Source of the DNA: Eunapius fragilis
Taxonomy: Eukaryota; Porifera; Demospongiae; Spongillida; Spongillidae
Assembly (NCBI GenBank): GCA_963681505.1
Contig: OY811975.1
Location: 1,384,586-1,448,585 of the forward strand
Direction: 5' to 3'
DNA: 64,000 nt
In this document: positions 26,176-54,743 of the stretch, piece after piece
Layout of the letters: each line of letters opens with the position of its first letter
Position numbering within the stretch: the first letter of the stretch is position 1
Notes under the pieces: model-generated
Databases searched by the model: none
The model's input: the letters and a program-made list of their open reading frames with translations, nothing else
Told to the model about the DNA's origin: nothing
Program-made: the position numbers and the translations under genes

Positions 26176-28556
26176 GTGCATGGTGCCTTGGGAGAATCTG
26201 ATAACATCAGCTTTCGCCACTGGCGAGAAGGTGGGATTTCGGAACAGGCGTTATGGCAGTTTCTATTAACAGGCGAGTTCGATGCAGCGGTGGAAAATTG
26301 GAGCAGCTACCTAGAAAGGCTAAACCACTTCCTCGCGGCGAATATGGTAGAAGATGAACAAAAGAAAGACGCGTTCCTCTGCTGTATTGGAAGAGACTCG
26401 TATGGGTTGCGGTTGCTACGCGCATTAATGGCTCCTAATAAATCAGCAGTCTGTACTTACCAGCAGTTGACGGACGCTCTCATCGTGCACTTCGTTCCTA
26501 AACCAGTTGTAATTGCGGAACGTTTCCGTTTCCATAAGCGGAATCAGATGGAAGGGGAAACAATTAAGTTATACGTTGCCGCGTAATATAGAAGTTCGCT
26601 GAACACTGTGATTTTGGAACAAGCTTGTCGGATACTCTCAGAGATAGGCTAGTATGCGGAATGGGAGACGAGAAGGTGCAACGACGCCTCCTGCCACGGC
26701 AAGACTTAACTTTGATGACGCTGAGATGGCTGAAAGAGCTGCGAAAGACGCGGCACAGTTTCATGAGACTGATGCACGAGAAGTACACCGTCTTCCGCGA
26801 CAACTAGGACACTGCTACCGTTGCGATGGTAACCACGACTCTAACTGACAGCGCAGGTTTATTAATGAACAGTGTAAGTACTGTAAGAAGCGGGGGCACA
26901 TTGAGAGGGCATGCAGAACAAAGAAAAGAGAGCTTAAGAAGAGCACAAGGAGCTGCTAAAACACAGGAAGGACAAGACAGTACAGAGGATGAAGAGACAG
27001 TAAACTGGGGAGAGGTACATGCACTGGGAATGGAACAATGGAAAGAAGGGAAACCCTTGTATGTTGAGGTGTGAATCTATAAGGTCAGTGTAACTCGATA
27101 TTGGAGTAGCAGTCTCTCTACTGCCTTACCGAATATACTATGAACGGTTTTCCCACTTACCTATCCACAAATCCAAGGCCTGCCTCAAGACTTACACGGG
27201 TAAGAAATTGTACCCTCATGGACAAATAACGATGAATGTGCAAATGGGAAGGAGTCACAGGAGACTACCACTGCTAGTTGTGGACGGATTGGACCACCAT
27301 TGCTGGGGAGGAATTGGCTAGCTGAAATCCCGGCTGTCAACTGGGATTACATTAAGGCAAGATGTAGAGAGGGAGAGAAAATTGAAGCTGCTGCTGTCCA
27401 AATACCCAAACCTGGTGAAAGATTTCCATTGGAGTGATGAAGGGGATCAACGGTCATCTTTCCCTCAAGAACGATGCAAAACAAGTTTTTCTGAAGGCAT
27501 GGCCAGTTCCCTACAGTTCAAGAACAAAAGGTGAAGACGAACTGACACACTTGGAAAAAGAAGGAATCATTACTCCAGTGGCATGGAGCAACTGGCAACT
27601 CCTATCGTTGTGGTACCCAAACCAGACGGGTCTGTCCTACTGTGCGGTGACTTCAAGGTAACGCTGAACCCAGCCCTGAATGTAGACAAGTATCCATTCC
27701 CACGAGTTGTAGACATCTTTGCCGCTTTGGGGGTATAGCATGCAGTATCTTTAGCAAGATAGATCTTCATCTAGCTTATTTGCAGATAGAGCTGGATGAG
27801 ACGTCGATCTAAGGAACTTCTTACCATCAACGCACAGAAGGGACATTACCGATTCAATCATCTAGCCTTTGGAATAGCTTCAGCACCAGCCATCTGGCAA
27901 AGAGCAATAGAACAAGTGTTACAGGGAATTCAAAAAACAGCTTGTCTTATAGATGACATCATTGTAGCGGGGGCCAATGTTAAGGAGCACCTCGAACTGC
28001 TGTAAAGGGTCCTCAGCCATCTGGATAGCTACAACTTAACCCTGAGTAAGAAGAAGTGTGCCTTCTTTCAGAAGGAGATCACCTATTGTGGGTATTGGGT
28101 AGATGGAGAAGGGTTGCATGCATAAAACATCCAGGCAGTAGTGGATGCTCCATCTCCTGGCAATCTCTCACAACTGTGTCCCTTTCTAGGAATGATAAAT
28201 TACTACCACAGGTTTCTTCCCAATCTGTCAACATGGCTGGAACCCTTACATCATCTACTACAGAAAGAAATAGACAACGAAGTGTTGGCAGTAGCATGGG
28301 GGGTGAAACGGTTCCATCAATATCTGTATGGCCTTCATTTTTACGCTTGTGACTGACCACCAGCCACTGATTGTGACTGCCCTGTTCTGTCCTGAACGAA
28401 TCATCTCTGCAACTACAGCATCCAGGTTGCAACGACAAGCAGACATCCTTTCAGGATACTCGTACACTATTAAGTACCGTAGGACAACCCAACATTTGAA
28501 TGCTGACGCCCTGTCTAGACTACCTGTTCCACATGAGGATTCAGTACAAGAATGAA
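26176..28556 (+). mobile_element. Gypsy-type relic, copy 1 (gag to RNase H)
   Basis: A gag-like region (26.18-26.6 kb), zinc-knuckle-like Cys/His residues near 26.8 kb, reverse transcriptase pieces (27.4-28.1 kb; YRFNHLAFGIASAPAIWQ) and the end of RNase H ([20 protein letters not shown]) are readable in order. No integrase follows. It is a heavily broken fossil, with about ten or more breaks. The sequence after 28557 is shared with copies 2 and 3. Confidence 0.75.
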
Positions 28557-29490
28557 TCACCATACATCACATGACCTATGTAATATACCATCTAATAATA
28601 GATATAGTCCAACAGTTGACTCCACATCAATAACCGGTTTTCGTCTAAACCGGCTAGCAGTTTCAAGCCTACCATCCCTCTGCTGGATGTGGAAGCAGCT
28701 CCGCGCTGTTGTCAATTTATTTTCCAGCTTTAAGGCACGTGGCATAAACCAAGATTATTGAACGCAAGAACGTCCCTGCAAGCACAGCAAGCACAGGAGG
28801 ACTGTCACTTAAATTTACATTGTTAATTCGAATGTATATACAACTTATACAATTAAGCATTTATATACATGAAACAAAACTTTTCAAATACAATCCGGCG
28901 ACTTGAGAACTTGAGTTATGGCTTGCAAACCCATCACAGATGGCAAAAAAAGAGTCGAATCATTTAGAAATCATTGTGCGATTGAACAGAGAAAATCACG
29001 CAAAAATCGAACAATTGACGTGTTTGTACTGTGGGCACCATCGTAGCGCAGAACATACATGTGAGATGTATATACGCTCAACATTTGGAGGCCATCCCAC
29101 CCCCCCACCCCCCGCCCCCGCCACCTTGCCTTGAATTTGTCTTTCACTAACATCTCATATTCACTGAAAGACAAATTCAAGGCAAGGGGGCGGGGGGAGG
29201 GGGGGGGGGGGGGGGGGGGGGGATGGCCTCCAAATGTTAAAGCGCATACAAGTCTTTAGGAAGCTGTTGTTCCACCGTCCAGTGAAATGATATGATTCTT
29301 AATAACTTTAATTAAAATTATTTGGCATCCTGACTGTTCGCAAAGGACGGCACCGAGTAACAGATTGCAATTCTCTACAGCATGAATGAATGAATGTGGT
29401 AAGCGTAAATTTCAGGACAATCGCTATACTGAACCTAAATTAAAGTTGGCCTTTTCCCTTTATCAGTATGCAGCACACTAACTACTACAT
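28557..29490 (+). repeat. Shared flank of gypsy relic copy 1
   Basis: This non-coding stretch follows the RNase H end and recurs after copy 2 (31986-33350) and copy 3 (about 44905-45169 plus 46521-47090). Landmarks are aaccggttttcgtctaaacc, ggatgtggaagcagctccgc and aacatttggaggccatccc. Confidence 0.8.
29076..29241. repeat. Local inverted duplication around a poly-C/poly-G tract
   Basis: The left arm reads aacatttggaggccatccc, then C-rich sequence, then ccttgccttgaatttgtctt. The right arm is its complement, ending in gggatggcctccaaatgtt, with a G tract of more than 20 bases. Copies 2 and 3 of the repeat have only one arm. Confidence 0.85.
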
Positions 29491-29774
29491 GTAAGTAAAA
29501 ACATTCTCTACGAGAAAGTTTGTGGGATATATAGGATTTGATTATGACATTGGTGGTATAAAAAGCAAGGAAACAAGGTCTTATCAGAAGGGAAAATGTC
29601 ATAGTCCTATATTTAGCACATTTCTAGGGCATGTGTTGTTTGTGTGCTAAATATAGGACTATGACATTTTCCCTTCTGATAAGACCTTGTTTCCTTGCTT
29701 TTTATACCACCAATGTCATAATCAAATCCTATATCCCACCAAATTTCTCGTAGAGAATGTTTTTACTTACTTGT
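29490..29774. mobile_element. MITE family 1, well-preserved copy
   Basis: The element is nearly fully palindromic: gtaagtaaaaacattctcta at the left and agagaatgtttttacttact at the right, with arms of about 130 bp. Copy 2 of the surrounding repeat at about 33345 lacks it. Confidence 0.85.
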
Positions 29775-30216
29775 TTTCTTAATTTTTTTTCATATATTAT
29801 ATAAAAGCGAGTCCTCCAGCCGATTCTGAAGCTATTGGTGAAATTTTCATCGCTTAGAAATGTTCCTGTCCTGAGTTATGCGATGCCAAGAAGAAGGAGA
29901 AGAAGACGAATGAGAAGACGACCCGCCCCTTGTTCCGAGACTGGGTACGAGGACGGGCAGTACACTCTTGTTCTCAACAACCACGCGGTTCAGCGACATG
30001 AAACAAAAACGAAACTACTCATTTTTGACTTCTAAATCGATTGCTAAAACAAGCTACACGATCCGATTGTCGGGAGTGTTGTTACAGACGGGTCGCGTTT
30101 TTTTTAATGACATTCATAGTCGTGGTGAAATCCTATATGGAAGTTTCTAACGAAACTTCCGATACAATTTATAAGATCGATCTTAATCATATTGGAGGGC
30201 ATATATTATTGGAGGG
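29775..30216. other. Spacer between two MITE copies, no gene seen
   Basis: The segment near 29815-30155 resembles parts of GPCR intron 1 (a gattctgaagc...ttggtgaaat block and a cctatatggaagtttct block at about 8200-8470). It is another dispersed non-coding repeat. Confidence 0.4.
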
Positions 30217-30431
30217 CATTTGCGCAGGTTTTGAGAAAAGGGTAATGAGACAAAAATCCTATATTGAGCACGTGTAAATGTAACAGAACCAAAAGAAGTC
30301 AGTGCTAAATATAGGATTTTTGTCTCATTACCCTTTTCTCAAAACCTTGTTCCCTTCCTTTTAACACCACCATTGCCTCCAATTCCTATATCCCACCAAC
30401 TTGCTCGTTAGAGAATGTTTTTCATTACTTG
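30217..30431. mobile_element. MITE family 1 copy with shortened left arm
   Basis: The arms gttttgagaaaagggtaatg and cattacccttttctcaaaac pair around a short centre. The right side continues into the family's terminal cccaccaacttgctcg and ttcattacttgt, while the left terminus is missing. Confidence 0.75.
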
Positions 30432-30589
30432 TATCATTAAAAACGCGACCAGCGTATACCTCGCGTTGTAAGAAACGGATAGTTTAGCTTATTGTTCCTA
30501 TCGATCTAGAAGGCAAAGGCGGTCATTTTAATGTTTTGTTCCAGTCTTCAAACTGTTTGCAGTAACAGTGGAAAACAAAGACGACGTAG

Positions 30590-31985
30590 CGAAGGAGAGA
30601 AATTTGAAGCTGCTGCTGTCCAAATACCGCAACCTGGTGAAGGATTCCATTGGAGTGATGAAGGGGATCAACGGTCATCTTTCCCTCACGAATGATGCAA
30701 AACCAGCATTCTGAAGGTACGGCCAGTTCCCTACAGTTTAAGTTGAAGACGAACTGACACACTTGGAAAAAGAAGGAACCATTACTCCAGTGACATGGAG
30801 CATCTGGCAACTCCTATCGTTGTGGTACCCAAACCAGACGGGTCTGTCCGACTGTGTGGTGACTTCAAGGTAACGCTGAACCCAGCCCTAAATGTAGACA
30901 AGTATCCACTCCCACGAGTTGTAGACATCTTTGCAGCTTTGGGGGGGAGCAGTATCTTTAGCAAGATAGATCTTCATCTAGCCTATTCGCAGATAGAGAT
31001 GGATGATACGTCCAAGAAACTTCTTACCATCAACGCACAGAAGGGACTTTACCAATTCAATCATCTAGCCTTTGGAATAGCTTCAGCACCAGCCATCTGG
31101 CAAAGAGCAATAGAACAAGTGTTACTGGGAATTCCAGAAACAGCTTGTCTTATAGATGACATCATTGTAGCGGGGGCCAATGATAATAAGCACCTAGAAC
31201 TGATGGAAAGGGTCCTCAGCTGTCTGGATAGCTACAACTTAACCCTGAATAAGAAGAAGTGTGCCTTCTTTCAAAAGGAGATCACCTATTGTGGGTATTA
31301 GGTAGATGGAGAAGCTAAGGGTTGCATAAAACATCCGGGCAGTATATAGTGGACGCTCCATCTCCTGGCAATCTCTCACAACTGCGTGCCTTTCTAGGAA
31401 TGATAAATTACTACCATAGCTTTCTTCCCAATCTGTCAACATGGCTGGAACCCTTACATCATCTATTACAGAAGGAAGCACAATGGGTGTGGTCAGAAGA
31501 CTGTGCAAAGGCCTTCCAAGAAATCAAACAGCTGATTGCTTCTGACTTGGTGCTGGTACATTTCAACCCAGAACTTCCACTTACCTTATCATGTGATGCA
31601 AGCCCATATGGGCTTGGGGCAGTGCTGTCTCACATTATGCCTAATGGAGTGGAGAGGCCAGTGGCATATGCTTCACGAACATTGACAACGGCTGAGCGTA
31701 ACTATGCCGAAATAGACAAAGAAGCGTTTGCAGTAGCATGGGGGGCAAAACGGTTCCATCAATATCTGCATGGCCTTCATTTTTACGCTTGTGACTGACC
31801 ACCAGCCACTGACTGCCCTGTTCTGTCCTGAACGAACCATCTCTGCATCTACAGCATCCAGGTTTCAAGGATAAGCAGTGTTCCTTTCAGGATACTCGTA
31901 CACTATTAAGTACCGTAGGACAACCCAACATGTGAATGCTGACGCCCTGTCTAGACTACCTGTTCCACATGAGGATTCAGTACAA
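30590..31985 (+). mobile_element. Gypsy-type relic, copy 2 (reverse transcriptase and RNase H)
   Basis: The reverse transcriptase part shows [38 protein letters not shown] and CLIDDIIVAG. RNase H shows LTLSCDASPYGLGAVLSH and the end [12 protein letters not shown]-like. It is a fossil with several breaks, better preserved than copies 1 and 3. It ends at the same point as copy 1, and the flank that follows is shared. Confidence 0.8.
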
Positions 31986-33350
31986 GAATGAATCACCATA
32001 CATCACGTGACCTATATGTAATTTACCATCTAATAGTCCAACAGCTGACTCCACAATTATTACCGGTTTTCGTCTAAACCGGCTAACAGTTTCAAGCCTA
32101 CCATCCCTCTGCTGGATGTGGAAGCAGCTCCGCGCTGTTGTCAATTTATTTTCCAGCTTAAGCACGTGGCATGAACGCAAGAACGTCCCTGCAACCAGAG
32201 CAAGCACAGGAGGACTGTCACTTAAATTTACATTGTTAATTCGAATGTATATACAACTAATACAAGCATTTATATACATGAAACAAAACTTTTCAAATAC
32301 AATCTGAGTTATGGCTTGCAAACTCATCAGGCCATCACAGAGGGGAAAAGAGAGTCGAATCGTTTAGAAATCATTGCGCGATTGAACAGAGAAAATCACG
32401 CAAAAATCAATAAAGCGCATAATTTTTTCTACACAATGATTGCTAAATAATTCGACGCTTCCCCCCCCCCTCCCCTCTCCTCCTCCCCCCCCCCCCCCCC
32501 ACACACGCATGCATTTGCCACTGTGTGAAGGTCTAACATATCTGAATCTTCTTTATATGCACATGTATATTCATGCACCAGTTTAACCGAGTCTCTCTTC
32601 AGGATATTAATCATTTATTAATACCAAATTTTGATCTTTCAACTTCCCGTTGGCCTGAGGCTGCTTCGTAACGTACTTCAAAATATCGAACAATTGACGT
32701 GTTCGTACTGTGGGCACCATCGTAGCGCAGAACATATAGCTAGTACATGTGAGATGTATATACGTAAATAAAAATATAATAATAGATACTTTAAGCCCCA
32801 AAATTGGGCTTAATATAAAGATATTATTAGGCCAAGGCGCTGAAGTTACCATTCACCCTCCTAAAAAGAGAATGACCCCAAAAGTTGACATCAAGATTCT
32901 ATGGGCATATTCGGCTAAAAAAAATAAAGCAAATGACATACTAGAGTATTCGACATTATATTCAGACACTAATTTGGATTCCCCTTCAGTTAAATCGCTC
33001 AACATTTGGAGGCCATCCCACCCTCCCCCGCCCCCTTGCATTGAATTTGTCTTTCACTGACATCTCATATTCACTGCTTCACTGGATAATATCCAAAGCG
33101 CATACAAGTCTTTAGGAAGCTGTTGTTCCACCGTCCAGTAAAAAGATATGACTCTTAATAACTTTTATTAAAATCATTTGGCATACTGACTGTTCGCGAA
33201 GGACGGCACCGAGTAACAGATTGCAATTCTCTACAGCATGAATGAATGAATGAATGTGGTAAGCGTAAATTTCAGGACAATCGCTATACTGAACCTAAAT
33301 TAAAGTTGGCCTTTTTCCTTTATCAGTATGCAGCACACTAACTACTATAC
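31986..33350 (+). repeat. Shared flank of gypsy relic copy 2
   Basis: It aligns with the flank of copies 1 and 3 as far as aggttcagtatagcgattgt-like complement sequence near 33290. It is interrupted by the mitochondrial insertion at 32765-32995. A segment of about 280 bp (32406-32685) is shared with copy 3 but absent from copy 1. Confidence 0.8.
32765..32995 (-). pseudogene. nad1: NUMT: fragment of mitochondrial nad1
   Basis: On the minus strand, 231 bp encode [16 protein letters not shown], then [16 protein letters not shown], then a glycine pair, a TGA codon and MVTSAPWPNN. This is the conserved acidic loop and following helix of NADH dehydrogenase subunit 1. The frame stays open only if TGA is read as tryptophan, as in sponge mitochondria, so the DNA came from the organelle. 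The two other copies of the surrounding repeat (near 29073 and 46872) run straight through the site, so the insertion boundaries are clear. A CG dinucleotide is present on both sides. It is not expressed as a functional protein in the nucleus. Confidence 0.9.
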
Positions 33351-33353
33351 AAT

Positions 33354-36300
33354 TTATAAGATCGGAGGGCATTTGCGCTTTCCATCAGAACACTTCTCCC
33401 ACAGAGGTTTTAGTGGCACACTGAATAAGCTCCATTCCTTCGAGGCCGCCTCCCATTTGTGCTTGTCACCCCAACCTAACCCGCACGGCTTCAAAGAATA
33501 GGGTTCTGTAACAGGATTGGATCGAGCTAGCATTAACTTACATAGGGAATTGGTTTGAGGCATATTTTCACTCCGCATGGCTGAAATGAAACAACACAAC
33601 GTGTACATTAATCAAAATTTGCTACTAACTTACGAGAGTCAAAGATTTTTTACACATGTGCACGCCGCACGGCTGAAAGAATAGAGCCACAAAATTACTT
33701 TTGCACTACTATAGTATGGAGCCACCTACATAACGAATACGCCGATGTTTACAGAATTTGATCCCACATGGCTTCAATGCGGAGTTGGGGAGCATTTGGG
33801 GATGCATGAGTTAACCAACAATACATAACGCTATGCACTTACAAAGTTAATTTTTTTGGAGCACATTTTGATGCCGCAAGGCTTGATTATGTAACAAGAC
33901 ATGTAATCGGGCGTAGATTACTAGCACGTATCATGTCACTTACAAATGGCAAAATTGGGCCATCACACCATTTGATACTCCGTAATTGATAGTAAGGATA
34001 AATGCTGAGCTTGTTGTCAGGCCAGCCATGCAGCAGACGTAAACAGAACTGGACCGGCCCTTTGTAAAGCTTATAATTTCCAGACAGTTCCAAGCTAATC
34101 TGATACATAAAACTTGCTGTCAAAGAAATTCCTCCTCTAATTATATCCTACAAAAAAGTCAAGTCATATAAGATACTTAGTATACTGAGCAGAGTATCAT
34201 GTAACCTACAAGAAGGGATGCAGAAGCCCCTGCAGAAGCAGATAGCTTTAATGACGGTATTAGCGCTCCTTTAACCGAAGCGCATTGGTCTATGCAAGCT
34301 CCCAAATCTGCATCTATGCCGAGCTGTGTGCTTAGAGATACTTCAAATCTCAACTCTGCAATATATATGAACAATGGTACTGTATACTCCAGCAGAGTAT
34401 ACTCCGGGCTTCTGTATAGGGGATATCTCCATGATTTGCATAATGGTATCTCCTTGCTGTAGTCAACGAGCACTTTTCCAGCAAGACTGACATATAGTCT
34501 GTTGTCAATTCGCTTCTCCCCAGGTTTGTTTTCGCTTGACAAAAGAGCTTCAAAGAAGGTTATGGATTGACCAAATGCGTAGGCTCGAGCCACACCCTTA
34601 GCAAACAGTTTAAAACTGCTAGGATTGCTTTGGCCTCCAAATCCAGCAAATGCACCAAAGGCAGCCCCCAAATTTAGCTGAGGAATTCCAAATGACTTTC
34701 CCCATATGTATGCCTTATGCATTGGGTAGGACCGAACGTCAAAATTTCTGGTATTTAAGTCTTGAACCATATTGAAATCGTTATTGTTTTCATTCCAAGT
34801 AGTACCTCGTTTCATCATGTGACTTCGGAGGAGAGCCGACCAATTGCTAGGTGCCTTAGGACCCAGCAGGTGTATGTAGTATGCTAGCTGCATCCTTAGC
34901 TCAGTGTTGTTCCCTCTAGAAGCTGTCAATATTGTCTCAAACAATCTGTCATAGATTGGGGGTACTTCTGACTCTGCTTCTGCTATAATTGAACGTAATA
35001 CCATCTCTGTGAGATCATCTGATGGATATGACTCAAGTGCATATTGGAGGGCATTCTGAACATCCACAGAACCAGTACTGTACCTCAGTGCATACACTGT
35101 GGCCAACTGGACAGTTGGGTTAGAAGATTAAGAAGTATCTCTTTGGTCACTTGGGATTGAGTGTTTCCCAGGGAGTGGATGTAATGGACCAGGATTGATG
35201 GATCAGTTGTTTGGTTGATGCGGTTCACTAGAAAGTGTACCACCTGATCTTTCTGTTGAGGTGGTAGAGATGAGGCCAGTGCACCATAGGAGAGGATGAG
35301 GGTATCTGTTGGATCATCACTGGAAGCAATGAGAGTCTCTATTAGTGACAGTGTGTCAGGATGAACTTTCTCAACAAATGCTAAGAGCACAGAGAGAGTA
35401 TTCCTTTCCTTCTGGTCTGTGGTACTCTGATGGGCTTTCAACAGAGCCTGAATTAATATAGACATGAAGGATAAGCTATGACATCATGAATGCATGCACC
35501 AGTTCAAACTAGATACCTGTTGTGACTCAATACTTCCTTCTGCACCAAGGAGAGAGTAAAGAAATACTCTCATTTCAATGTCCTCCTCACTAGTTGAATT
35601 GACAAGCTATGCAAAGAACAGCATGTCTATGTATAGCTATAGATTCCAATCACACCAACAGCTTGTTGGTTGGTGAGACGTGTAACAATAATTTTTTTAC
35701 CATGCTGATGTAGTCCATGACTTCTGTGAGAGCTGGTACTACACCAGGTGAGTGCCCATTTTCATATTCCATTCTAAGAATACTGCTGATCAGGTGTCCT
35801 AGACAATGAAGCAGTCAGCTTTTCAAAAGGGTACATTTTCTCACTATTGCTTACTAGTATTTGTGTCAGACAGATTTTTGTGAAGGTGAATTAGGTGTGG
35901 CTTGATTGATGGATTGTCATTTCGTAGCTGGGCAAAATCTGTATTTCTGGGCTCTCCACCTAATGCATGATGGTGGGAGGTAAAGTGTTTTGCGATATAG
36001 GGTTTGGGGACATGAATTATTGTGGTTCATTGAAGTTGAACTTCTATGTGGGTGATGGTTACCATTATGAACAGTAGCAAATATGCTGCTCTCAGTTAGC
36101 TCTGCATCAATCGTGCTCCTTCTGACTACAGATAGCTTGGGTAACATTTCTCCAACTTTAGAGAGTACTGTCCAGAACCACTGAGTTTACTGGTGCCAAA
36201 TGACTCATCATAGGTGGGGATATCATCAGAAATTGATTCACCATAGAGAGGGATTGGCTGAACTGGTCCATTCACTGTTATTTTGACAGTGGCACTTGAA

Positions 36301-39128
36301 CTTAGCATGGTTCCTCTTTTGTATTCAACAACTTCTGATTTTATGATGCCCACTGGCCTTCTGTTCAACTCGTTAGACATAAACTGAATTACACTTTCAG
36401 AATTAACTTTACGATGCATGATCATGTGATATTCATCAGTTGTTTCATAGCTAAGTGTTGCAATAATTTATACACCTTCATAATTCAACCCCTCAATTAC
36501 CTCACCTGTAATGTGCAATATGCTTGGATTGAGTATCTTCTTCAATCTCCTTGGTGGTTCTCTTAAAGTTTGCTTGAAAAGCAGCCGCTATTCCTTTCTT
36601 GAAGTTGGTGGCTGAGATATTTTCATTGGGCTTGTGTTGTACTGATACGACCTTCCCATCTGATGTTTGGATGAAACAGAATGGGTCCTTTAGCAGTTCA
36701 TCGGCTGCACCTGACGCAACCGTCAGCCTGCGATTGTATAGCATCGTTAGATTGCCATTTATGGATTCACCCCACCAAGCCGAAAGATTACCAAACCTTA
36801 ATATAAATATAACTTAGGCATCAACATGTCGCCGCGATCGATGCGTGGGGTAATTCTAGCACGCATGCCTATATATATTAGTAAAGAAGCACACTGCAGT
36901 AGTCTAGAAGTGGTGCCTTAACTTATATAGTACTATAATTATTCATGAACCTTCTTCATGTTGTATCTAAGGGGCGTATTCATTTTCTGTTGCATTTTCA
37001 AAGCCCCCAAAAGATGCCATTAAAGCCAAAGCATGCTTTGGATTGTTAATTTGTGGACTAACATGTAGTTATACAATGAATTGAAATAAGGATGGTATAC
37101 ACTTTAACCATGCATGCACAGGTAGTGTCGTGTGAGAACCAATTGCGAATGATGCAGACCTGAAGACCGGTGACCCGGCTTGATTTAGTTCTATTCGTTA
37201 ATTTTTAGCGTTTATCTTTATCTGTTACAAAGATAAAGCTGTGTACATTTATTTACAAGCGCGCCAGATTAGTGTCGGTGACTTATAGTATCCGCGCCTC
37301 CCAAATACGAATGCATGGCGCGCGGTATTTGGCTCGAACGCGGAAAAATGTGCACGCACTTTGCACAGCTGTAAATCTTCTTAACGGATGAGTTAGAAAC
37401 GAAAGAACAGAACAAATCGAGTATGTAGGTAAAGGGTCTCTTTGCCTGTAAACCGAATTCGAAGCGATTTGCTTATACACCTGGAGAATTTTATGGCAGT
37501 TTTGAACTCCGCTAATGTGTCGGACGTTGCATGCAGTATTGCTGCAAAACTGTAGCAGAAGACCTACTTCCATTGTATACCGCGTAGAGAAATGGTGTGC
37601 TATGAAGGGACAAAAATAGCGTTTACCGTTTGGAAATTATGCGATTTAAACGTAAATACGATTTGTAACCATTTCCTATATAGTGTAATATAATTTATAC
37701 GATGTATCACGCATTTTGTGCGAAACTGTTCCATTTATTTACATAAGGGTATTCATTAATAGTTCTTTGCTGTCATGTTACGGCCCTTAGCAGTCACAGG
37801 GTACCGATATGGAGTTGTCTATCGTATATATGGAACAGCGTCCAGCAAAATCACCCTAGTGATTCTATTTCAAATTCCAGGACAAAGAAAAGAGAAAAGT
37901 GAAATATGCGGCTAATTATAAAGTCAGTGCCTAATAACATTATGATGGGTAGTCCAATTTAGGATGCGTAAGGACCATTTGATAGAAGCTGTTTGGAGTT
38001 CGCGGAAAATTGAAAAAATTTGAAAACTTGAAAAACTACCCAGAAAGGTGATTTTGCTGGACACTGTCCCATATATTGTTTCTAAGCTTACATGTACTCC
38101 CTTATTATATTATTATGCATCACGTAGTTTTGCATATAGATAGTTCAATTGAATAATCTTGGCAAAGAGGCATTTATAATAACGTCCCCCCCCCCTCACA
38201 CACACACACACACACGGGCTAGGCAACCTGATGCCAGCTGGTATACACACTACCAGGAAATTATTTTAAAAAGAGGATTTAACGCATTCTTAAACGATAG
38301 CATCGTTGCAAAGTTCAGCATGTACGCGTGTGGTATGCATGCTTTTGTGTTGGAACTAAATAACTTCCTTTTCTCCAAGCTACGCCAATTTGTATGCAAC
38401 TTTACTGCTTACACTTCTCCACGCAGACCCTCCTGTGGTGAAACGGTGGTGTTCTCGAGGTCAATGCAGATTCTGGTCGCCTTTAGTTCATTAAATGTGC
38501 CCACTATAAAAATTAGAAGCAACACGAAGATCACGGTTGCTGCATGTGTGCACTTTCAGTTTGAATTTTGTAGCCATTTATACCCTTGCTAAAACTAATA
38601 TGAGTTAAAATTGCCACTGCCCACTGGTCGCTGTGGCATGCGATGATATATTTTACTTAATTCTTATACTGATTACATACCCTCAGCTGTGCCGCTGTCA
38701 TGCCTCATTTTCTTTTTACTGGCCCAACACATGGGGATGGCACAAAACCCTTACCTGATTCACATCCAGCTCTGACAATGGAGCTGGCAACGAGCTGTGA
38801 TTGGGTTCCGCCCATCACTTTCACCAACGTTGCCGAGTACGAGTACACACAGCGCTGTGTGTTCTGTGCGAGCATGCATGTAATAGCAAAAATGCATGAG
38901 GGATGTATATCAATATGACTTAACGAAGATCATCATGCACAAGCACATGGATGCACCCTGCGCCAGCAATTGCATGCATACAAAATACATGCATGATGCA
39001 ACTATAGACATCAAGTTCTTAATCAATCTCACCGAACACGCCTTTGTTGCAATGTATTTTGATTCTGCCCGTCCACACAACTGACAGATCAGCAGCACTG
39101 TAGCAAGTACAGCCAAACGAGTGGCCAT
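33354..39128 (-). CDS. Large lipid transfer protein, MTP/vitellogenin-N type
   Basis: Modelled exons: 39033-39128, 38755-38854, 38413-38503, 36506-36796, 36191-36450, 36063-36155, 35855-35959, 35701-35798, 35517-35606, 35151-35447, 34210-35106, 33944-34147, 33843-33881, 33730-33771, 33634-33672, 33542-33580 and 33354-33488. Phases agree throughout (2,916 nt, 971 aa). A signal peptide (MATRLAVLATVLLICQLC) is followed by RCVYSYSATLVKVMGG, the start of the vitellogenin N-terminal beta barrel. A helical region follows (LLKAHQSTTDQKERNTLSVL; DTLILSYGALASSLPPQQKD), then beta-rich sequence. Family members carry lipid; MTP loads lipoproteins in the ER, and the length fits MTP (about 900 aa) better than vitellogenin. 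The C-terminus, made of Cys-rich microexons, is unlike MTP as I know it. Family 0.8, MTP subtype about 0.5. Confidence 0.75.
33542..33881 (-). repeat. Tandem microexons encoding PCG-x-K-x-C units
   Basis: Four consecutive small exons (39, 42, 39 and 39 nt), all phase 0 with GT-AG borders, encode PCGIKMCSKKINF, PCGIKFCKHRRIRY, PCGVHMCKKSLTL and PCGVKICLKPIPY. The last exon of the gene (33354-33488) begins with the same PCG. Introns are 49-71 bp. Exon and intron duplication together explain the array. Confidence 0.8.
36797..38412 (-). other. Intron 3 of the lipid transfer gene, longest in the gene
   Basis: Donor GTAAGC at 38412 and acceptor AAG at 36797. I see no coding exon in this 1.6 kb. 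A (ca)n microsatellite preceded by a C tract sits at about 38187-38216. Confidence 0.5.
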
Positions 39129-43794: not shown

Positions 43795-44880
43795 CAAAAG
43801 TTGAAGATGAACTGACACACCTGGAAAAATGAAGGAACCATTACTCCAGTGACATGGAGCAACCAGCAACTCCCATCGTTGTGGTACCCAAACCATACGG
43901 ATATGTCCTACTGTGTGGTGACTTCAAGGTAATGCTGAACCCAGCCCTGAATGTAGGCAAGTATCCACTTCCACAAGTTGAAGACATATGTGCGGCTTTG
44001 GGGGGGGGGGGGGGGGGGGAGGGGGGAGCAGTATCTTTACCAAGATAGATCTTCATCTAGCTTATTTGCAGTTGGAGATGGATGAGACGTCCAAGGAACT
44101 TCTTACCATCAAGGCACAGAAGGGACTTTACCGATTCAATCGTCTAGCCTTTGGAATAGCTTTAGCACAAGCCATCTGGCAAATAGCAATAGAACAAGTG
44201 TTACAGGGAATTCCGAAAACAGCTTGTCTTATAGATGACATCATTGTAGCGGAGGCCTATGATTAGGGGCACCTAGAACTGCTGGAAAGGGTTCTCAGCC
44301 GTCTGGATAGCTACAACTTAACCCTGAATAAGAAGAAGTGTGCCTTCTTTCAGAAGGAGATCACCTACTGAGGGTACTGGGTACTGGGTAGATGGAGAAG
44401 AGTTGCATAAAACGCCAGATAAGATCAAGGTATAGTAGTGGACGCTCCATCTCCTGGCAATCTCTCATAACTGCATGCCTTTTTAGGAATGATAAATTAC
44501 TACCACAGCTTTCTTCCCAATCTGTCAACATGGCTGGAACCCTTACATCATCTACTACAGAAGGAAGCAAAATGGGTGTGGTCAGAAGACTGTGCAAAGG
44601 CCTTCCAAGAAATCGAACAACTGATTGCTTCTGACTTGGTGCCGATACATTTCAACCCAGAACTTCCACTCACCTCATCATGTGATGCAAGCCCATATGG
44701 GCTTGGGGCAGTGCTGTCTTACATTATGCCTAATGGAGTGGAGAGGCCAGTGGCATATGCTTCACGAACAATGACAACGGCCGATCCAAAAAGACAAAGA
44801 AGTGTTGGCAGTAGCATGGGGAGTGTAACAGTTCATCAATATCTGGATGGCCTTGAATTTTACGCTTGTGACTGACCACC
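43795..44880 (+). mobile_element. Gypsy-type relic, copy 3 (reverse transcriptase and RNase H)
   Basis: It is homologous to copies 1 and 2: reverse transcriptase words such as YRFNRLAFGIALAQAIWQ and LIDDIIVAEA, then RNase H LTSSCDASPYGLGAVLSY. A G tract of more than 20 bases at about 44001-44023 lies inside it. It is a heavily broken fossil. Confidence 0.75.
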
Positions 44881-45176
44881 AGCCACTGACTGCCCTGTAC
44901 AGCCTGATCCAACAGTTGACTCCACATTAATAACCGGTTTTCGTCTAAACCGGCTAACAGTTTCAAGCCTACCATCCCTCTGCTGGATGTGGAAGCAGCT
45001 CCGCGCTGTTGTCAATTTATTTTCGAGCTTTAAGGCACGTGGCATAAACTAATACAAGCATTTATATACATGATGGGCTTTTCAAATACAATCCGGCGAC
45101 TTGAGTTATGGCTTGCAAACCCATCACAGAGGGGAAAAAAGAGTCGAATCATTTAGAAATCATTGCGCGATTGAAC

Positions 45177-46513
45177 CATAGATTGAAGACCTTACGGAAC
45201 GGGATTGGAAATGCAATACATTGCAATGGCATTGACACTGTTTCACGTAACTATGACGTCATGTACATTTTATGAGTATTCATTACATGGTGCGCTATGG
45301 AGTCTTGGTGTGAGGGTGAAGAGAGGAGTCGGTGTGAGGGTGATGGGAGGAGTCTTGATGTGAGGGTGAAGGGAGGAGTTTAGTGTGAGGATGAAGGGAG
45401 GAGTCTTGGTGTGAGGGTGATAGGAGTCTTGGTGTGAAGGTGATGGGAGGAGTCTTGGTGTGAGGGTGATGGGAGGAGTCTTGGTGTGAGGGTGAAGGGA
45501 GGAGTCTTGGTGTGAGGTGATAGGAGTCTTTGTGTGAGGGTGAAGGGAGGAGTCGGTGTGAGGGTGATGGGAGTCTTGGCGTGAGGTTGAAGGGAGGAGT
45601 TTAGTGTGAGGGTGAAGGGAGGAGTCTTGGTGTGAGGGTGATAGGACTCTTGGTATGAGAGTGAAGGGAGGAGGAGTCTTGGTGCGAGGGTGATAGGAGT
45701 TTTAGTGTGAGGGTGAAGGGAGGAGTTTAGTGTGAGGATGAAGGGAGGAGTCTTGGTGTGAGGGTGATAGGAGTCTTGGTGTGAGGGTGATGGGAGGAGT
45801 CTTGGTGTGAGGGTTGAGACAGTAAGTTCACTGCATTCATGGCGCCTTTGTTGTTCGTACTTCTCTGGTTTTTTGACAATCATTCTCGCCGATACATGTC
45901 CGAATTAAATTGTCAGATATGCAGGGCTGTAAGTACGCTTCTATAAGTACAGAAAGCTTCAACCCCCCCCTAAGGCACCTATTGGCCTTAGCTCTTTTCG
46001 TAAAACTAATTTTGAAGCCAAACTATCTACCATAGTGGCACAACAATCCATATGGCACGTAAGGTATTTTAGCTACTTTTTTGTGTTTGAAGCTATTTAA
46101 CTTTAAAGCCATAGGACTTGTTCTCTTCAAACCAGCACTACGGTATTCTTCAAACGTCGAGCGTTTTAGCAAGGCAAGCTTCGTCGCTTGAACATGCTGC
46201 ATGTTGCCACGGCGATTCATACAAAAATATCACTTTGCTTTGGCAACGCTTGATCGACTTGTTTTGGTGATCCACGCACTCTAAGCTTTACATACATTGT
46301 GTCTGAAGTAACCAAAAGAGTTAGAAACCATCTATAGACTTTAGGGAATCTTAACTGCTTCTATTCAGTTGTCTACGTCCACACCAATTCTCATGTCACC
46401 AAGAAAGCCCGCGCGAACTTAATTAGATTCATGCAAAACAAGGATGAAAATTTTCATTGAATTGGAATAGATGCAGCGTTTTCAATCCCGTTCCGTAAGG
46501 TCTTCAATCTATG
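45177..46513. mobile_element. 1.34-kb TIR transposon with a minisatellite cargo
   Basis: The ends are perfect inverted repeats of about 31 bp starting CATAGATTGAAGACCTTACG. ATTGAAC is duplicated on both sides (45170-45176 and 46514-46520), and the uninterrupted site is seen in the other two repeat copies (near 28983 and 32383). No transposase is encoded, so it is non-autonomous. The superfamily is unresolved: 7 bp is between the usual hAT and Mutator target lengths. Confidence 0.85.
45292..45816. repeat. Minisatellite, unit about 25-27 bp
   Basis: About 20 imperfect units of the form ggtgtgagggtgaagggagg plus agtctt run without spacers. The long open frame on the minus strand (PSPSHQDS-like repeats) is a by-product of the repeat. 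Confidence 0.9.
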
Positions 46514-47090
46514 ATTGAACAGAGAAAATCACGTAAAAATCAATAAAGCGCATATACTGTTCAATTACACAATGATTGCTAAATGATTCGACGCTCCCCC
46601 CCCCCCCCTACGCATGCATTTCCCACTGTGTGAAGAAGGTCTAGGATATCTGTATCTTCTTTGTATGCACATGTATATTCATGCACCAGCTTAACCGAGT
46701 CTCTCTTCAGGATATTAATCATTTATTAATTCCAAATTGTGATCTTTCAACTTCCCGTTGGCCTGAGGCTGCTTCGTAACGTACTTCAAAATATCGAACA
46801 ATTGACGTGTTCGTACTGTGGGCACCATCGTAGCGCAGAACATATAGCTAGTACATGTGAGATGTATATACGCTCAACATTTGGAGGCCATCCCACCCCC
46901 CGCCCCCTTGCCTTGAATTTGTCCTTCACTGACATCCCATATTCACTGCTTCACTGGATAATATCTAAAGCGTATACAAGTCTTTAGTAACAAGTCTTTA
47001 GGAATCTGTTGTTCAACCGTCCAGTGAAAATATATGACTCTTAATAACTTTAATTAAAATCATATTGCATACTGACTGTTCGCAAAGGAC

Positions 47091-47489
47091 GGTGTCATAG
47101 TCGCCAATGACTCCCCTAAATTTTGACTCCCCAGTCATTCACGCCTAGGCATATATGACTCCCGGTAATAAATAAATGCCTAGGCGTATTTGACTCCCCA
47201 GTCATTTACGCCTAGGCATATATGACTCCCCAGTCATTCACGCCTAGGCATATATGACTCCCCCTTGATAAGAATGACTCCCGGGAGTTATCACAGCCTT
47301 AGGCATAATTAACTCCCCGTCGATCTTTGCCAATGTATATGATTCCTCTGTTGTCTGCCTAGACAAAAATTGGCTCCTGTCTTGGGAAGGCGTTATAACC
47401 TTAGGTATAAATAAATCCCCGTTGGTTTTTCCAGAAATAGCAAATAAAGGTATTTAAATGACTGGGGAGTCATTGACGACTATGACACC
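47091..47489. mobile_element. Short TIR element with internal repeats
   Basis: The ends ggtgtcatagtcg and cgactatgacacc are inverted repeats, extended inward by aatgactcccc and ggggagtcatt. The inside repeats a unit containing gactccccagtcat and cgcctaggcata three to four times. Left flank is the gypsy-relic repeat; right flank is unrelated. Confidence 0.75.
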
Positions 47490-47772
47490 ATCAATTAATC
47501 CCCCAGTAATATCTGGCTATATAATCTGTATCATGATCTGAATATATAGAAAATGAATGAACACTGACAAAGACAAAGTCTTCTTGCTACTTACAAAGAC
47601 TGACAGTTAATGCACAACCATGAAGCAGGAACACTTTTTTTCTGAATGTTCATGCAGCGGAAATGGTACCACTGTTGGCATGGATCCCAATGTATGACAT
47701 TGTCATCAGATGATTCTGGCAGTCTACATGTGCAAGTCAAATGTATTCTGAAACGTTTGGTTTTGTTCCTCT
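47490..47772. other. Spacer, no gene seen
   Basis: No coding motif or repeat was recognised between the TIR element and the protease gene. Confidence 0.4.
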
Positions 47773-48834
47773 TTACTGCAATAGATCCGTGGGGTGAAGA
47801 AACATGGGGTGAAGAAAATGGTTGTAGGCAGTTCTGCTCAAACAGTGCACCAAACGTTGACGAAGATTTTTTTGCTCAAATGTCACCTCCCCTAAATTTT
47901 CCCCCAATGCAGCATGGTAGGCGAAAGCAATGGCAAATAATCCACAGTCCACTCCTCCTGTTTGCTGTTGAACGGGCATTGCTCTCACAGTTAGAACATT
48001 GCTTTGGGTGGCTTCTTTGTAGATTATGGCAATTTGCTCTTTCAGGCTATCACTTAAAACATGGTTGAATTTGCTATCATACAGCCTGACCTCTCCTTCA
48101 TGATAGCTGGTGGTCACCCAGTGGTCACGTTCAGGTACAAAAAAACCTGTACAACTGCATAGGGCAATGTAATAAATAAAATGTGCATTCATGTCATAAT
48201 GGCATACCTTCCTGAAATGATCCATCACTTATCAATGCTGGAGAGAATCCCTTATTTTGAAACAGTAGAGTAGACTGCAAACCAGCTAAATGTTGAAATT
48301 GTTTTTTCAGGAGTTTTTGTGCAGCTTGAATGTGTTCATCAGTCAACATTTCGTTGGTTTCAATAATTGTTTTATGCTTGTAGCTGAGTGATAAATCTTT
48401 AATCCAATGGGGACACTGCTGCAAAAAATTTGCATGAACAGTCAAATTTAACAATATACATGTAAAGAATAATTTGCACACCTTTTGTGATTTGATGACA
48501 TTTCTCTTTGAAGATTTATTTGAAGAACTCAATACAGACTATATATTCACACCCATAGCAATTGAGACATCAGGAGTTTATGGGTCAGAGACCTTGAAAT
48601 TTCTGAAGGAGCTTGGCCATCGCCTTAAACAGACATCAGGAGAGTGTAATGCCTACTCCTACTTGCTGCAAAGGCTATCAGTTGCAGTCCAACGTGGAAA
48701 TGCCACTTCTGTTATGGGTTCTGTGGACCAGCATGCAGTGGAAGACTTTTTTCAGTAACTTTTTATTAGTATAGTTAATTGAGTGTATGATTTCTGTAAT
48801 TACCAAAATATTAAAAGACAAAATATTAATCTCC

Positions 48835-49261: not shown

Positions 49262-52200
49262 TTGTTATAGCACATTAAAAATCAATTCATCAGTAATAGC
49301 AAAGAATGTAACCTTTGTTTTTTTAGGTTTGATTGTGGGAACAAGTGGGCGTTATCTCTGTGGTCTGAGCTTCTAAGCGTCGGCAGTTTTACTGTATTTT
49401 AGGAAGCGACATCTCTATTCAAATACATCCGCTAAAGCCCAATTGGTACATCGGCAATAGGGTGTATTGCTAATTGTATTCATGACACTTCATATCCTAC
49501 ATAGAACCTACTAACGTACGTTTCCGATTCAATCAATTTGTTTGTTTCATGCGTAAAATCACCCATTACAGTTACGCTGGTGAAACTTAATACAAGCATT
49601 CATGTACATGTATAAAAACTACAGCTCTTGCAGTTAACATCATTCTTTATCAGCGACTTGTCCATCACAGCTTCAATTCGATATCTCCATTAGCGATAAT
49701 ATTAAGCTCCACTTGCTCTTTCACGTGGCAGTAGGTACCCTTGAACTCACCGACGAAGTATTCAGACTCTTTACTATTGGAGTGGTTATGAACGGGCAAG
49801 GTTAATCCTACTGTACATTGCGGCTTAGGTGGCTCCTTCTTCGTTGTGCGGCATTTGCAGAGTAATGACATCACCCAAGCCGCTCGGACGTCGCCGTTTA
49901 GTACGCAGAAGAAGATAAAAATGAAGAACCCTTGCAACGAGTTAGCAACTGTGAATGCGATCTGGAACGCCTTGTCAGCGTTAGCGATTGTCAATGCTCC
50001 GAATACCCACGTGAGACCAAGCAGACAGAATATCCCAGTGATGTTAGACAATAGTTTGATGGTACCGAAATTATTCACTGGTCCATTAGATCGCTTGATG
50101 AGGTGCTTGATAAGGGTCAGGATCACCACGACGAATATGACTGCATTGAAGGAAATTACCAGGAGGATTGGTCCCAAAAATGCAGCAAAAAATACGGTTA
50201 CATTATTGATGAAGCAACTGAAAGGGTTAAGTGTAAATGCAACATAAGTACAAAATGATGGACGTACTATCCTTCAGTTGAGTTATGCCTGACTCTGACA
50301 AGTAAATTCCTATCGATTGAGAGCGGGATTAGCACTGGAACCAACGGAACGACTGAGTGGTACAAAGAACACATTGACGTGAACATGAATGTAATGTCCC
50401 ATGCAAACATACCCCAACAGATGATGGAGACAGCAATGATATAACGTGTGGTGATTCGGACAAACACAATCACAATTTTCTGGAACATGAGGAGGGCCTC
50501 GGCCCCCATCCACATCACAGCCACCAGGGTGAAGTAGTGTATCAACACGGACACAGTCACACAGCCACCAAAACTTTCAGTCCTATCAATGCCAATCACA
50601 AACACCAACAACATGCCAATGAGGGCACAACATAGCTGGATGTGGAACTTGGAAACATCTTTTTGCCTTAGTTTCCTAAACAGTTACAATTTATTTACAC
50701 ACTATCAGTAAGTGGATACATTATATGTTATTACTTTATCAGCAGTAGAGTAATAAGTGCTAGTACCACACCAGATAGGGACAGTGCTATGCCAATGTAT
50801 GAGATGACTTCCAATGCACCATGAACAACCTTATCCAATTGCTGATTGGGCTGGACCCTAATTGATATGTCCTGTATTGATATTGCAATGCTTGTATATA
50901 GCACACTTTCTTTTGACACTCGGAGTCTTACCACAAGGATGGCAAAGTTTGTCAAGTGGAAGCATTGGCACTCAATACTGGAAACAGCTGTCAGATTGCT
51001 TTGATGCACATATGTAACACATCCATCAGTAGTCCAGTTGCCTTTGCCACCTGTATGGGAAATAAACCATATGCTGCATAATAATTTATCCTACTCTCTC
51101 TCAAATTTCCTATGCAATTTCTTTAGTCACCATTTATCCTATCACTTATACATATGTCATACCTGCAGCTTGAAAATCCCAGCTAACACAGATGTAGTTT
51201 GTAAAGTTCTATGCAAAATAGTGTTAAACATAAGTTATATGCTATCATGATAATGAATTTACTTACTTCATTTGGTATGGTAAAAATAAGCACAACTGGA
51301 TCAGTGAGATTGTTTGTCATACCACCAACAACTGTAACACCAATAATAAGAGACCACAGTAATATCATTTAAAACATGATTTGCCAATGGAAATAACGAT
51401 GCAGTCTTATATATGGAAAAGAAAATTCCAACGTTAGTTAAATTAGAAGTAGCTTTTATTGAATCGAACAATGAAGGTGGAAGAGCAACTGAAGCAGTTA
51501 ACTTAGGACGATTAGGATCAGTAGATGTATTTGTAGTTCCTCCCTGTATTTGTTCGTAACCTTCCGTTGAAAATTTCTTTCCTTCAGTGGTAAGCTTTTC
51601 TAATGAAATCTGAATGCCAGAGTAAATAAGCACTAAATCTGTATCAAATGCAATTTACCCTTTCAGCAAAAAATACAGCTTGGTTTGTAGATACGCGAAT
51701 TTTTATAAAGTTGTTCTGCTGAACAAGATTAGCAGCAATTATCTCAAAGTTCTCCACCAGTCTGTGAAATAATGCAGTTTAAAAGAAAATTACACAATGA
51801 AAAATAAGCAATTACACTGGGCCATATTTGCTCAAAACTGATGAATGCCATTTTTGGACGCTGCTTAACACTGTAACCACATTGATAATGGTCTGATTGA
51901 GGAAATTATTATCATCTGCAATAACTACATGTAGATAAAAGGTGTGCAGGATACCTCTGGCTGTATAGGCACTTCCGGTGATGATATGTTGGAGATTTGT
52001 TTGATCACATTTGCCACAACAGCCAAGTTAAAAATGCTCTGGTCCACCTGTTGTGTGGCTTGGGATACCAAAGTCTGCAGCTGTGTTGTAATGTTTACCA
52101 TATAATTGGCTGTAATGGTTTGCTGTAAATGATGGAAGGATTGTAAAATTAGCAGCATTGCACATAGATTAAGTTTCAAGCTACATTTTGTATGGCAGTG

Positions 52201-54743
52201 TTTAGGTCTTTGAACTGTCTGGTGACAATGGTGGGACACTGTGAGGCATCTTCGGTCCACTTCAGGTCTCCATTGCAGAACCTTGTGATGTTCTGACCCA
52301 CCACTCCATATTGACACATCTGGGAAATGGTTTGGCCAATTGCTACTTCAGGCCAACTGTATATTCCACGGTCCCCATTGGACGAATTCAGGTCACAGCT
52401 GCAAAATTCCATTGCTGCAAAGCAAGTACTCTTCTAATTATTTGCTTAGAATAGTAACAAAGCATGCATACCAGATACATTTAGATTGAGAGAGCTTGCT
52501 ATATGAATAGAAGAAACATTTCCTATCATTGAATTAATTGAATGTAAAAATGTTTGGGTGTCGAGGTTGAGAAAGATAATTATTTTGCACCCAATCCTGC
52601 TCCATCCATTGATGACATCATTTTCGCACCTACGAAGTCATGAATGGATCATACATGATGTAGTTATGCTTAGCTGTACCTCTGTACTGCAGCACACAAT
52701 GCTACTATACTATCTGGTGTGGGTGCTTCACTTTCCATCAGAGTGATACTGTTGTTGGTAAACTGTATCAACTGAAAGAAAGTTATTAATGATTGCAGTT
52801 TTGTATTCATCCACTCACCTCATCCTGGAACAATGACAAAGTCCCATCATTCTGGTGGTTATCAACACTAGTTAGTGAAGATACCTTGAGATATACCACA
52901 GAAGGTTTAGATGGTGGGACTAACAAAGTTAATAAAAAATTTAATAAATTTATTGTGTTATCGCAGAGGACCTCACCAGGTGGCGTTATAGCTGTGACAA
53001 CAGCATTTGGGCCACACCCACCTGCAGTACAGGCACGCAGAAATATGGTGTACATGGTATTACTTAACATGTTTTGAAGTAGAATAGTGGATGTATTTGT
53101 GACACTGTAAGGGCTTGCTGGAGAGCCAGTTGGTGGACTGTACATCACCTTTGTAGTGACTACAACAGTAATGACAGTGACACAGTTCCTTCCTTACCAT
53201 GTATCCTGTTATGATTCCATTACTGCACTTTGGTGAGCTCCATGATACACGTAAACTGCTGTAGCTAAGGGAATTGACAGTAACATTGAGAGGTGAAGTA
53301 GGTGGGGCTTGAAGTGTGGTAAAAAATCGAGGTACGGACACTTTTCCGAATCCTGCTGCCATATTTGCCAATACATCAAATGTGTAGGCTGTGTATGGTA
53401 CTGGACACATTAATGCAACAGGTGGATTATGGGAGTACATGCGTGGCAGGTAACGTACTAAGCAACAAGGTTTGGAGTTCCAAATATCTCTGGTATCTTG
53501 GAACTGTGATGAAGTAACTAAAATTTTGTCCATTTAAACAGCTATTATCAATCAATCTAGGGCTGACAACAGTGATGTTTACAGAGTATGAGGCAATGAC
53601 ATAGTTCTTTTCCAGAGGACAACTCCATGTGAGATTGGCAGAGGTAGAGGTGAGGGAATTAACTGGAACCTCAGGTGGCTGAGGGACCTGAGCTTGCACT
53701 GTAAATGACCAGTGAATTAAAGAAATGTCTACAATTCACGTATTTCCAAACTCACCATTATGGGACGAATCAAGTACGGGTTTACTAAATGGTCCAGGTC
53801 CTTGACTGGTGTAGGCTCTCACTGAAATGTTGTATTGAACACATTCCTGCAGTGTACCTAATACAAGTTGGGTCTGGGCACCACTTGTATTCACGTAACT
53901 GATCCCAAGCTGCCCACTTTGCAATGGCCATGTGTACTTAACCTCGTAGAGTGCAATGACCACACAGTTATTGATAGCATTACCATTCCAACTGATATTG
54001 ATGGACGTTGGGGTAATAGTGGTGGCTGTCACATTGATGGGAGCACCGATGTTTGCTGAGGAAAATATGCTTTGATTTAATCTGCAAAATAGTAATCATA
54101 AGCAGACACATTATTGCAACTACACACACTTACGCACTCGATTGCATTATCAAATACACATTAGCGTTAGATATCACACATGTACACACATACCTTTGCA
54201 AATAAAATTAAGATCTTTGTAACTTGCATGCGGAACACTAAAGATTAAAAATTTATCTTTCAATAGCTTCACACAATATTGACACATCACTTTGTTTGTT
54301 TGGTGATTATAATGATAGTATTTTTAAGTGAGTGTTATACTTTTAGTGCTTCTACATTTCAGACAGATCCTGTAATCTGTCAAAGGTAAAGAGTTAACCA
54401 GGTCATTCAATATGTGGTCAACCACCGATCAAGAGGAGCAATATTGGTCAGTGAACGTCCACAGCACCAACAGTCACAGCCAAAGAGTAGTAGAATGAGG
54501 CAATTCAAAAACAGAGGAACCCTTGGCACGCAGGCTTCAAATTAATGTCCAGAATTCTTCTTGACCAAAATGGATGCCAGACATCCATCATAAGCTGAAT
54601 TTTTAGTTTTGTCTTGCCGGATCTAAACTGTGTACGCATCTTGTCATGAATCACCATATGAAGACTGACCTGTGGCCAATGTCTGGTGGTATTGATCGTT
54701 TAACTGATGAATACACTGAAATTGCAGTCCATTCAATTTCTCC

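What the first reader, a model, noticed from the sequence alone, without database searches (positions are those of the whole stretch)
33354..33881. Array of 39-42 nt symmetric microexons encoding a PCG-x-K-x-C repeat
Four neighbouring microexons, each phase 0-0 and each starting with a PCG codon triplet, followed by a last exon starting PCG, give a Cys-rich tail to a lipid transfer protein. The unit duplicated with its introns, so copy number and splicing could vary freely without frame loss. I do not know such a tail in the MTP/vitellogenin family.
Basis: seen in the sequence. Interest (0 to 1): 0.75.

Follow-up and report, generated by a model that had tools for sequence, protein, structure and literature searches.

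The report
Repeated tiny exons on lipid-transfer gene
An animal-type gene for a probable lipid-carrying protein ends in four tiny, evenly phased exons that each add the same small cysteine-rich unit; the exons look real, but whether the number of units is varied by splicing, and what the tail does, is untested.

Summary
On the minus strand, four exons of 39, 42, 39 and 39 nt, each AG|PCG...|GTRRGT and phase 0-0, precede a last exon that also opens PCG. AG|PCG occurs 5 times in both strands, all here; the full exon pattern, defined after seeing the array, occurs 4 times, all here, and 0 times in 60 simulated windows. Differences in the 7-codon core fall 10/0/29 on codon positions 1/2/3, the mark of selection on protein.

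New here: the preceding exon ends in a half unit. Spliced, the repeat reads C-x(6,7)-P-C-G, five copies, each straddling an intron, so skipping whole cassettes would rejoin intact cysteine pairs. The array is basic. Its only Pfam neighbour is the Out-at-first C-terminal domain, below that family's cut-off; 0 of 20 shuffles find it.

The host gene is probably a large lipid transfer protein (Vitellogenin_N at the cut-off on one exon; no PDB match). Two upstream exons carry a one-base frame break, so the copy may be decaying or misread. Duplication with introns is unproven. No relatives were found; a sponge origin was not tested.

The parts
36506..36796 (-). exon E1 (FGNLSAWW...TQSKHIAHY), N-terminal lipoprotein-like domain; acceptor AG just upstream, needs a phase-2 donor in an exon not yet found
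   Evidence: Vitellogenin_N 24 bits, cut-off 24; splice context
36063..36450 (-). exon E2 (YETTDEYHM...FATVHN), with a one-base frame break near 36161
   Evidence: coordinates of its two frames, splice context
35701..35798 (-). exon E3 (HLISSILRMEYENG...DYISM), joined to E2 in phase 1
35517..35606 (-). exon E4 (LVNSTSEEDIEMR...ESQQ), phase 0-0, 90 nt
34210..35447 (-). exon E5, HEAT-like part then a further part of unknown fold; one-base frame break at 35124
   Evidence: HEAT_2 weak, below cut-off
33944..34147 (-). exon E6, phase 0-0, ends IKWCDGPILPF = second half of a repeat unit
   Evidence: pattern CDGPILPFPCG
33843..33881 (-). microexon 1, 39 nt, PCGIKMCSKKINF
33730..33771 (-). microexon 2, 42 nt, PCGIKFCKHRRIRY
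33634..33672 (-). microexon 3, 39 nt, PCGVHMCKKSLTL
33542..33580 (-). microexon 4, 39 nt, PCGVKICLKPIPY
33354..33488 (-). last exon, PCGLGWGDKHKW...KCPPIL*, closes the last unit
30583..33347 (+). gypsy-like retroelement copy (extent by similarity to other copies; its true start was not determined) whose end lies 6 nt past the stop codon; not part of the coding tail
   Evidence: RVT_1 at 30747-31298; similar pieces within 27361-29487 and 43798-47092

Best explanation
A large-lipid-transfer-protein-like animal gene carries a C-terminal tail built from an old tandem series of symmetric microexons. Spliced together, they give a basic, cysteine-laddered tail of five C-x(6,7)-P-C-G units, each unit split by a phase-0 intron. 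Shown: the exon anatomy, the phases, protein-level constraint on the core of the unit, the repeat register. Inferred: each C...PC pair forms a disulphide-closed hairpin, so the tail is a short chain of stapled hairpins made in the secretory pathway; [quoted passage not shown] Because the pair straddles the intron, any whole-cassette gain, loss or skip leaves complete units, which would make tail length easy to vary in evolution. Regulated splicing of the cassettes is possible but unshown.
For: Splice sites, lengths and phase in 4 of 4 microexons and in both flanking exons. Pattern absent from 60 simulated windows. Core differences among the four microexons 10/0/29 at codon positions 1/2/3 over six pairs, column permutation p 0.00017 in 200,000 draws. 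Five C..PCG units; 12 Cys in the 108 residues from IKWC to the stop; the 70-residue array part has pI 9.6 with 15 K/R/H against 1 D/E. OAF_C match E 0.00019 for the 53-residue array, 0 of 20 Cys- or PCG-keeping shuffles match it at E up to 1. Host gene: Vitellogenin_N. A disulphide-linked C-terminal fold proposed to shield the lipid cavity is described for honey bee vitellogenin (PMC9219001, abstract and passages).
Against: No transcript. Two one-base frame breaks in upstream exons; in 8 ORFs of the window's duplicated receptor block no one-base indel separates the copies, so frequent sequencing error is not obvious and decay is possible (those ORFs were picked for being open, which under-counts breaks). 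The last exon shares only PCG with the others: its 7-codon core differs from each microexon at 3-4 first, 2 second and 3-6 third positions. Over the whole unit dN and dS are not clearly apart (0.39 and 0.42 for microexons 1 and 4), and dS could not be computed in 3 of 6 pairs. Vitellogenin_N falls to 21.8 bits, below cut-off, on the joined protein; no PDB match for the gene body. No structure of the tail was computed.
Confidence: 0.5

Rival explanations
1. The gene copy is a recent pseudogene or decaying allele; the array is a faithful fossil of a tail that works, or worked, in an intact copy.
For: Two one-base frame breaks in exons E2 and E5; a retroelement copy ends 6 nt beyond the stop; no one-base indel between copies in 8 ORFs of the duplicated receptor block.
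Against: The splice junctions from E1 to the last exon keep GT and AG, the array has no stop or shift, and the upstream exon frames hold no stop apart from the two breaks. Two isolated assembly errors would look the same.
Confidence: 0.3
2. The tail is a genuine relative of the OAF (Out at first) C-terminal domain, expanded by exon duplication and fused to a lipid transfer protein.
For: OAF_C is the only Pfam family reported for the array, E 0.00019, and 0.00013 with flanks; the best stretch is array residues 13-39 on profile positions 23-54; 0 of 20 shuffles match.
Against: 22 bits against a cut-off of 29. Less than half of the 69-position profile is covered. Scanned alone, microexons 3-4 plus PCGLGW reach only E 3.4. 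The profile spacing of the two motifs (about 19-20 positions) differs from the 13-14 residues here. No BRICHOS or OAF_N family in the exons scanned.
Confidence: 0.15
3. The segments are intronic or spurious and the protein ends soon after 33944.
For: No RNA. Read on from 33944 without splicing, the frame meets a stop at 33887.
Against: Pattern statistics and codon-position bias.
Confidence: 0.05

Closest known systems
OAF_C, Pfam PF22873 (Out at first, C-terminal; mature part of a BRICHOS-family protein)
   Same: Cys-rich C-terminal stretch; array residues 13-39, with two PCG motifs, align to it. PMC9714404 (section 2.3 read) reports four conserved disulphides in a 70-residue mature part.
   Different: Score below the curated cut-off, shorter and regular spacing, five units, different host protein.
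C-terminal region of vitellogenin (honey bee, PMC9219001, outline, abstract and passages)
   Same: Disulphide-linked appendage at the end of a lipid carrier; proposed to cover the lipid site.
   Different: There a fold of helix and strands after a vWF domain; here a simple repeat, with no vWF family in the Pfam scans. The same paper says MTP lacks a homologous region.
Schistosome micro-exon genes (PMC8293314, passages)
   Same: Short symmetric exons removable without frame loss.
   Different: There the genes consist mainly of such exons, at most 36 bp, with varied products; here four exons of 39-42 nt encode one repeated motif at the end of a long ordinary gene, and splicing variation is unshown.

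Membership tests
Large lipid transfer protein superfamily | Vitellogenin_N (PF01347) domain | tested here: inconclusive
   24 bits at the 24-bit cut-off for exon E1 alone; 21.8 bits, E 8.3e-05, for the joined 773-residue string
Large lipid transfer protein superfamily | helical (HEAT-like) region followed by lipid-binding beta sheets | tested here: inconclusive
   HEAT_2 E 0.0057, below cut-off, beside chance-level ERAP1_C and CTP_synth_N; single-sequence AlphaFold puts helices within residues 3-195 and 271-288 of 305 but mean pLDDT is 35, unusable
Microsomal triglyceride transfer protein (MTP) | orthology to MTP rather than vitellogenin or apoB | not tested
   no collection of animal genomes at hand; no PDB sequence match
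OAF_C (PF22873) | curated Pfam score of 29 bits | tested here: not met
   21.6 bits for the array, 22.2 with flanks, 18.4 for the 97-aa tail
OAF protein | BRICHOS/OAF_N part ahead of the C-terminal domain | tested here: inconclusive
   no such family in Pfam scans of the exons, but exons before E1 are not known
Micro-exon gene type (schistosome-like) | several symmetric exons in a row | tested here: met
   4 exons, phase 0-0
Micro-exon gene type (schistosome-like) | exons of at most 36 bp making up most of the gene (PMC8293314) | tested here: not met
   39-42 nt, at the end of a gene whose other exons are 90 nt or longer
Micro-exon gene type (schistosome-like) | alternative inclusion producing variant proteins | not testable with these tools
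   needs RNA

The most novel reading that the evidence does not exclude
An adjustable-length disulphide ladder: the cysteine-pair unit is out of register with the exons, so any number of microexons can be included or lost while every C...PC pair stays whole, letting an animal tune the tail of a lipid carrier by splicing or copy number.
Probability: 0.2. Interest if true: 0.6.

Novelty: new variant of a known kind. Interest (0 to 1): 0.42.

Why it matters
If expressed, it would be a small, clean example of a repeat tail grown by symmetric microexons, with the structural unit straddling each intron. Exon number would then equal repeat number, so tail length could be compared across individuals and species directly from DNA. 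It would also be a Cys-rich tail on a lipid-transfer-type protein; the listings of the eight literature searches made name no such tail, but most listed papers were not opened.

Tried and rejected
Whole genome of the window: none held. Relatives in viral contigs (5 and 8 pattern matches, none confirmed) and bacterial/archaeal genomes (25 pattern matches, none confirmed). Phage records with the open frame 33887-34147, which is exon E6 plus unspliced run-on: no match. PDB by sequence for the 97-aa tail: 21 sequences up to E 10, all labelled coagulation factor X, best E 0.008; the five printed alignments pair scattered cysteines and one PYPCG, and I set them aside as a chance likeness without a control. 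AlphaFold of the downstream part of exon E5: mean pLDDT 35, not used for a fold search. Signal-peptide exon, sought between 36800 and 42000 by hydropathy alone: a candidate ATG at 39128 (MATRLAVLATVLLICQLCGRAES...) has a phase-0 donor that does not fit exon E1, which needs phase 2, so it was left out. Introns as repeat copies: the five introns align only at their ends. Literature: eight searches, of which one search returned nothing; four papers were opened: PMC10182729 (passages), PMC9714404 (outline and section 2.3), PMC9219001 (outline and passages), PMC8293314 (passages).

Full report
Anatomy. The gene lies on the minus strand. Exons that can be followed run from 36796 down to 33354. Between exon E6 (34147-33944) and the last exon (33488-33354) lie four short segments: 33881-33843 PCGIKMCSKKINF, 33771-33730 PCGIKFCKHRRIRY, 33672-33634 PCGVHMCKKSLTL, 33580-33542 PCGVKICLKPIPY. 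Each follows AG and is followed by GTAAGT or GTAGGT; each is a whole number of codons, and so is E6, whose donor is GTAAGT. Introns are 62, 71, 57, 53 and 53 nt.

Is it more than chance? Codons for PCG, in any frame, occur at 14 places in the two strands of the 64-kb window; 5 of these follow AG, and all five are in this gene; 60 order-2 Markov windows gave a mean of 0.73 AG|PCG each. The full pattern AG|PCGxxxC...GTRNG occurs 4 times, all here, and 0 times in the 60 simulated windows. That pattern was written after the array was seen. Open 39- or 42-nt segments between AG and GTRRGT, without any motif, number 7 in both strands, 4 of them this array. In the seven-codon core of the four microexons, differences summed over six pairs are 10, 0 and 29 at codon positions 1, 2 and 3; a column permutation gives p 0.00017. 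Results against: over the whole unit the dN/dS contrast is not consistent (dN 0.39 and dS 0.42 for microexons 1 and 4; 0.56 and 2.85 for 1 and 3; 0.85 and 1.53 for 2 and 3; dS not computable for the other three pairs; one codon of microexon 2 left out), and the last exon's core differs from every microexon at first and second positions too. I read this as constraint on the PCG-x-K-x-C core and drift in the rest.

Register. The exon before the array ends IKWCDGPILPF, and the last exon starts PCGLGW without a second Cys. Read across the junctions there are five copies of C-x(6,7)-P-C-G (CDGPILPFPCG, CSKKINFPCG, CKHRRIRYPCG, CKKSLTLPCG, CLKPIPYPCG), each spanning one intron. The exon is thus half a unit out of register with the cysteine pair. 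Disulphide pairing is inference.

Duplication. The units very likely share an origin by protein sequence, but the repeat finder on 32500-35000 reports only one 18-nt pair, lying at the donor sites after E5 and E6, and no repeat of the unit; the five introns align only at their ends. Duplication with introns is plausible and old; it is not shown.

Host gene. Exon E1 scores 24 bits for Vitellogenin_N at a 24-bit cut-off; the joined string scores 21.8 bits, below it, with HEAT_2, ERAP1_C and CTP_synth_N also below their cut-offs. PDB sequence searches of the downstream part of E5 and of the joined string found nothing up to E 1. An AlphaFold run without an alignment was unusable (mean pLDDT 35). 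I call it a probable large lipid transfer protein; MTP in particular was not tested. The Pfam scans show no vWF domain.

Integrity. Exon E2 changes frame near 36161 and exon E5 at 35124, each consistent with one base too few. As a control, eight ORFs of the receptor block duplicated at about 2-13 kb and 49-64 kb show no one-base indel between copies: of 8 indels, 6 are multiples of three, one of 4 nt lies at an ORF edge and one of 2 nt at 4143. The ORFs were picked for being open, so breaks are under-counted. The breaks may be true lesions or errors. Splicing round them was not tested. A gypsy-like element copy ends at 33347, 6 nt past the stop. An 18-nt stretch that includes the stop (33347-33364) recurs at 30162-30179 near the element's other side, which suggests a target duplication with the stop kept (inference).

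Resemblance. The array matches OAF_C at E 0.00019, 21.6 bits, cut-off 29. Of 20 shuffles that kept all Cys (10) or all PCG and Cys (10), none matched OAF_C at E up to 1; neither did three rough hand scrambles at E up to 10. Array residues 13-39 align to profile positions 23-54. Cut in two, microexons 1-2 give E 0.0015 with a best stretch on 23-34, and the second half E 3.4 on 44-54, so OAF_C seems to hold two motifs of this kind. OAF's mature part is reported as 70 residues with four conserved disulphides (PMC9714404, section 2.3). Membership fails the curated score; common ancestry stays possible.

Function. A stapled, basic tail on a secreted lipid carrier is the likeliest reading; secretion is assumed from the family, since no first exon was established. 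A disulphide-linked C-terminal region that may cover the lipid cavity has been proposed for honey bee vitellogenin, and that paper states that MTP lacks a homologous region (PMC9219001). Schistosome micro-exon genes show the idea that short symmetric exons can vary proteins by splicing (PMC8293314). Nothing here shows that this array is spliced variably.

Limits. Apart from Pfam and the PDB, no animal sequences or RNA could be searched; the contig and phage collections used are viral and prokaryotic and gave no relative.

Noticed in passing
2071-12954 and 49296-64000: Two copies (about 87-91% identical in three long pieces) of a block; the first copy holds secretin-family 7tm_2 and fibronectin III matches, an adhesion-receptor-like gene duplicated within the window (the second copy was not scanned against Pfam).
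   Followed up: partly
27361-29487, 30583-33347, 43798-47092: Three related gypsy-like element copies, about 82-97% identical in pieces; the middle one ends 6 nt beyond the stop of the lipid-transfer-type gene.
   Followed up: partly
30162-30179 / 33347-33364 and 30211-30225 / 33364-33378: Short identical stretches on the two sides of the middle element, possibly a target-site duplication that holds the gene's stop codon.
   Followed up: partly
29487-29774 and 30226-30347: Palindromic repeats (91% and 82% self-complementary), MITE-like, the first with relatives at 7533-7829 and 54746-55037 among others.
   Followed up: no
60296-60604 and 62209-62517: An ORF on the plus strand and one on the minus strand whose printed first 100 of 103 residues are identical, the sign of an inverted repeat.
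   Followed up: no
45299-45814: Minisatellite with a 26-nt unit, about 20 copies.
   Followed up: no
47594-48228: Ulp1-type C48 peptidase and PHD-finger matches just above cut-off on the minus strand, perhaps from a mobile element.
   Followed up: no
39033-39128: Minus-strand ORF start with a hydrophobic, signal-peptide-like N-terminus (MATRLAVLATVLLICQLCGRAES) and a donor site; it may be the first exon of the lipid-transfer-type gene if a further small exon lies between.
   Followed up: partly
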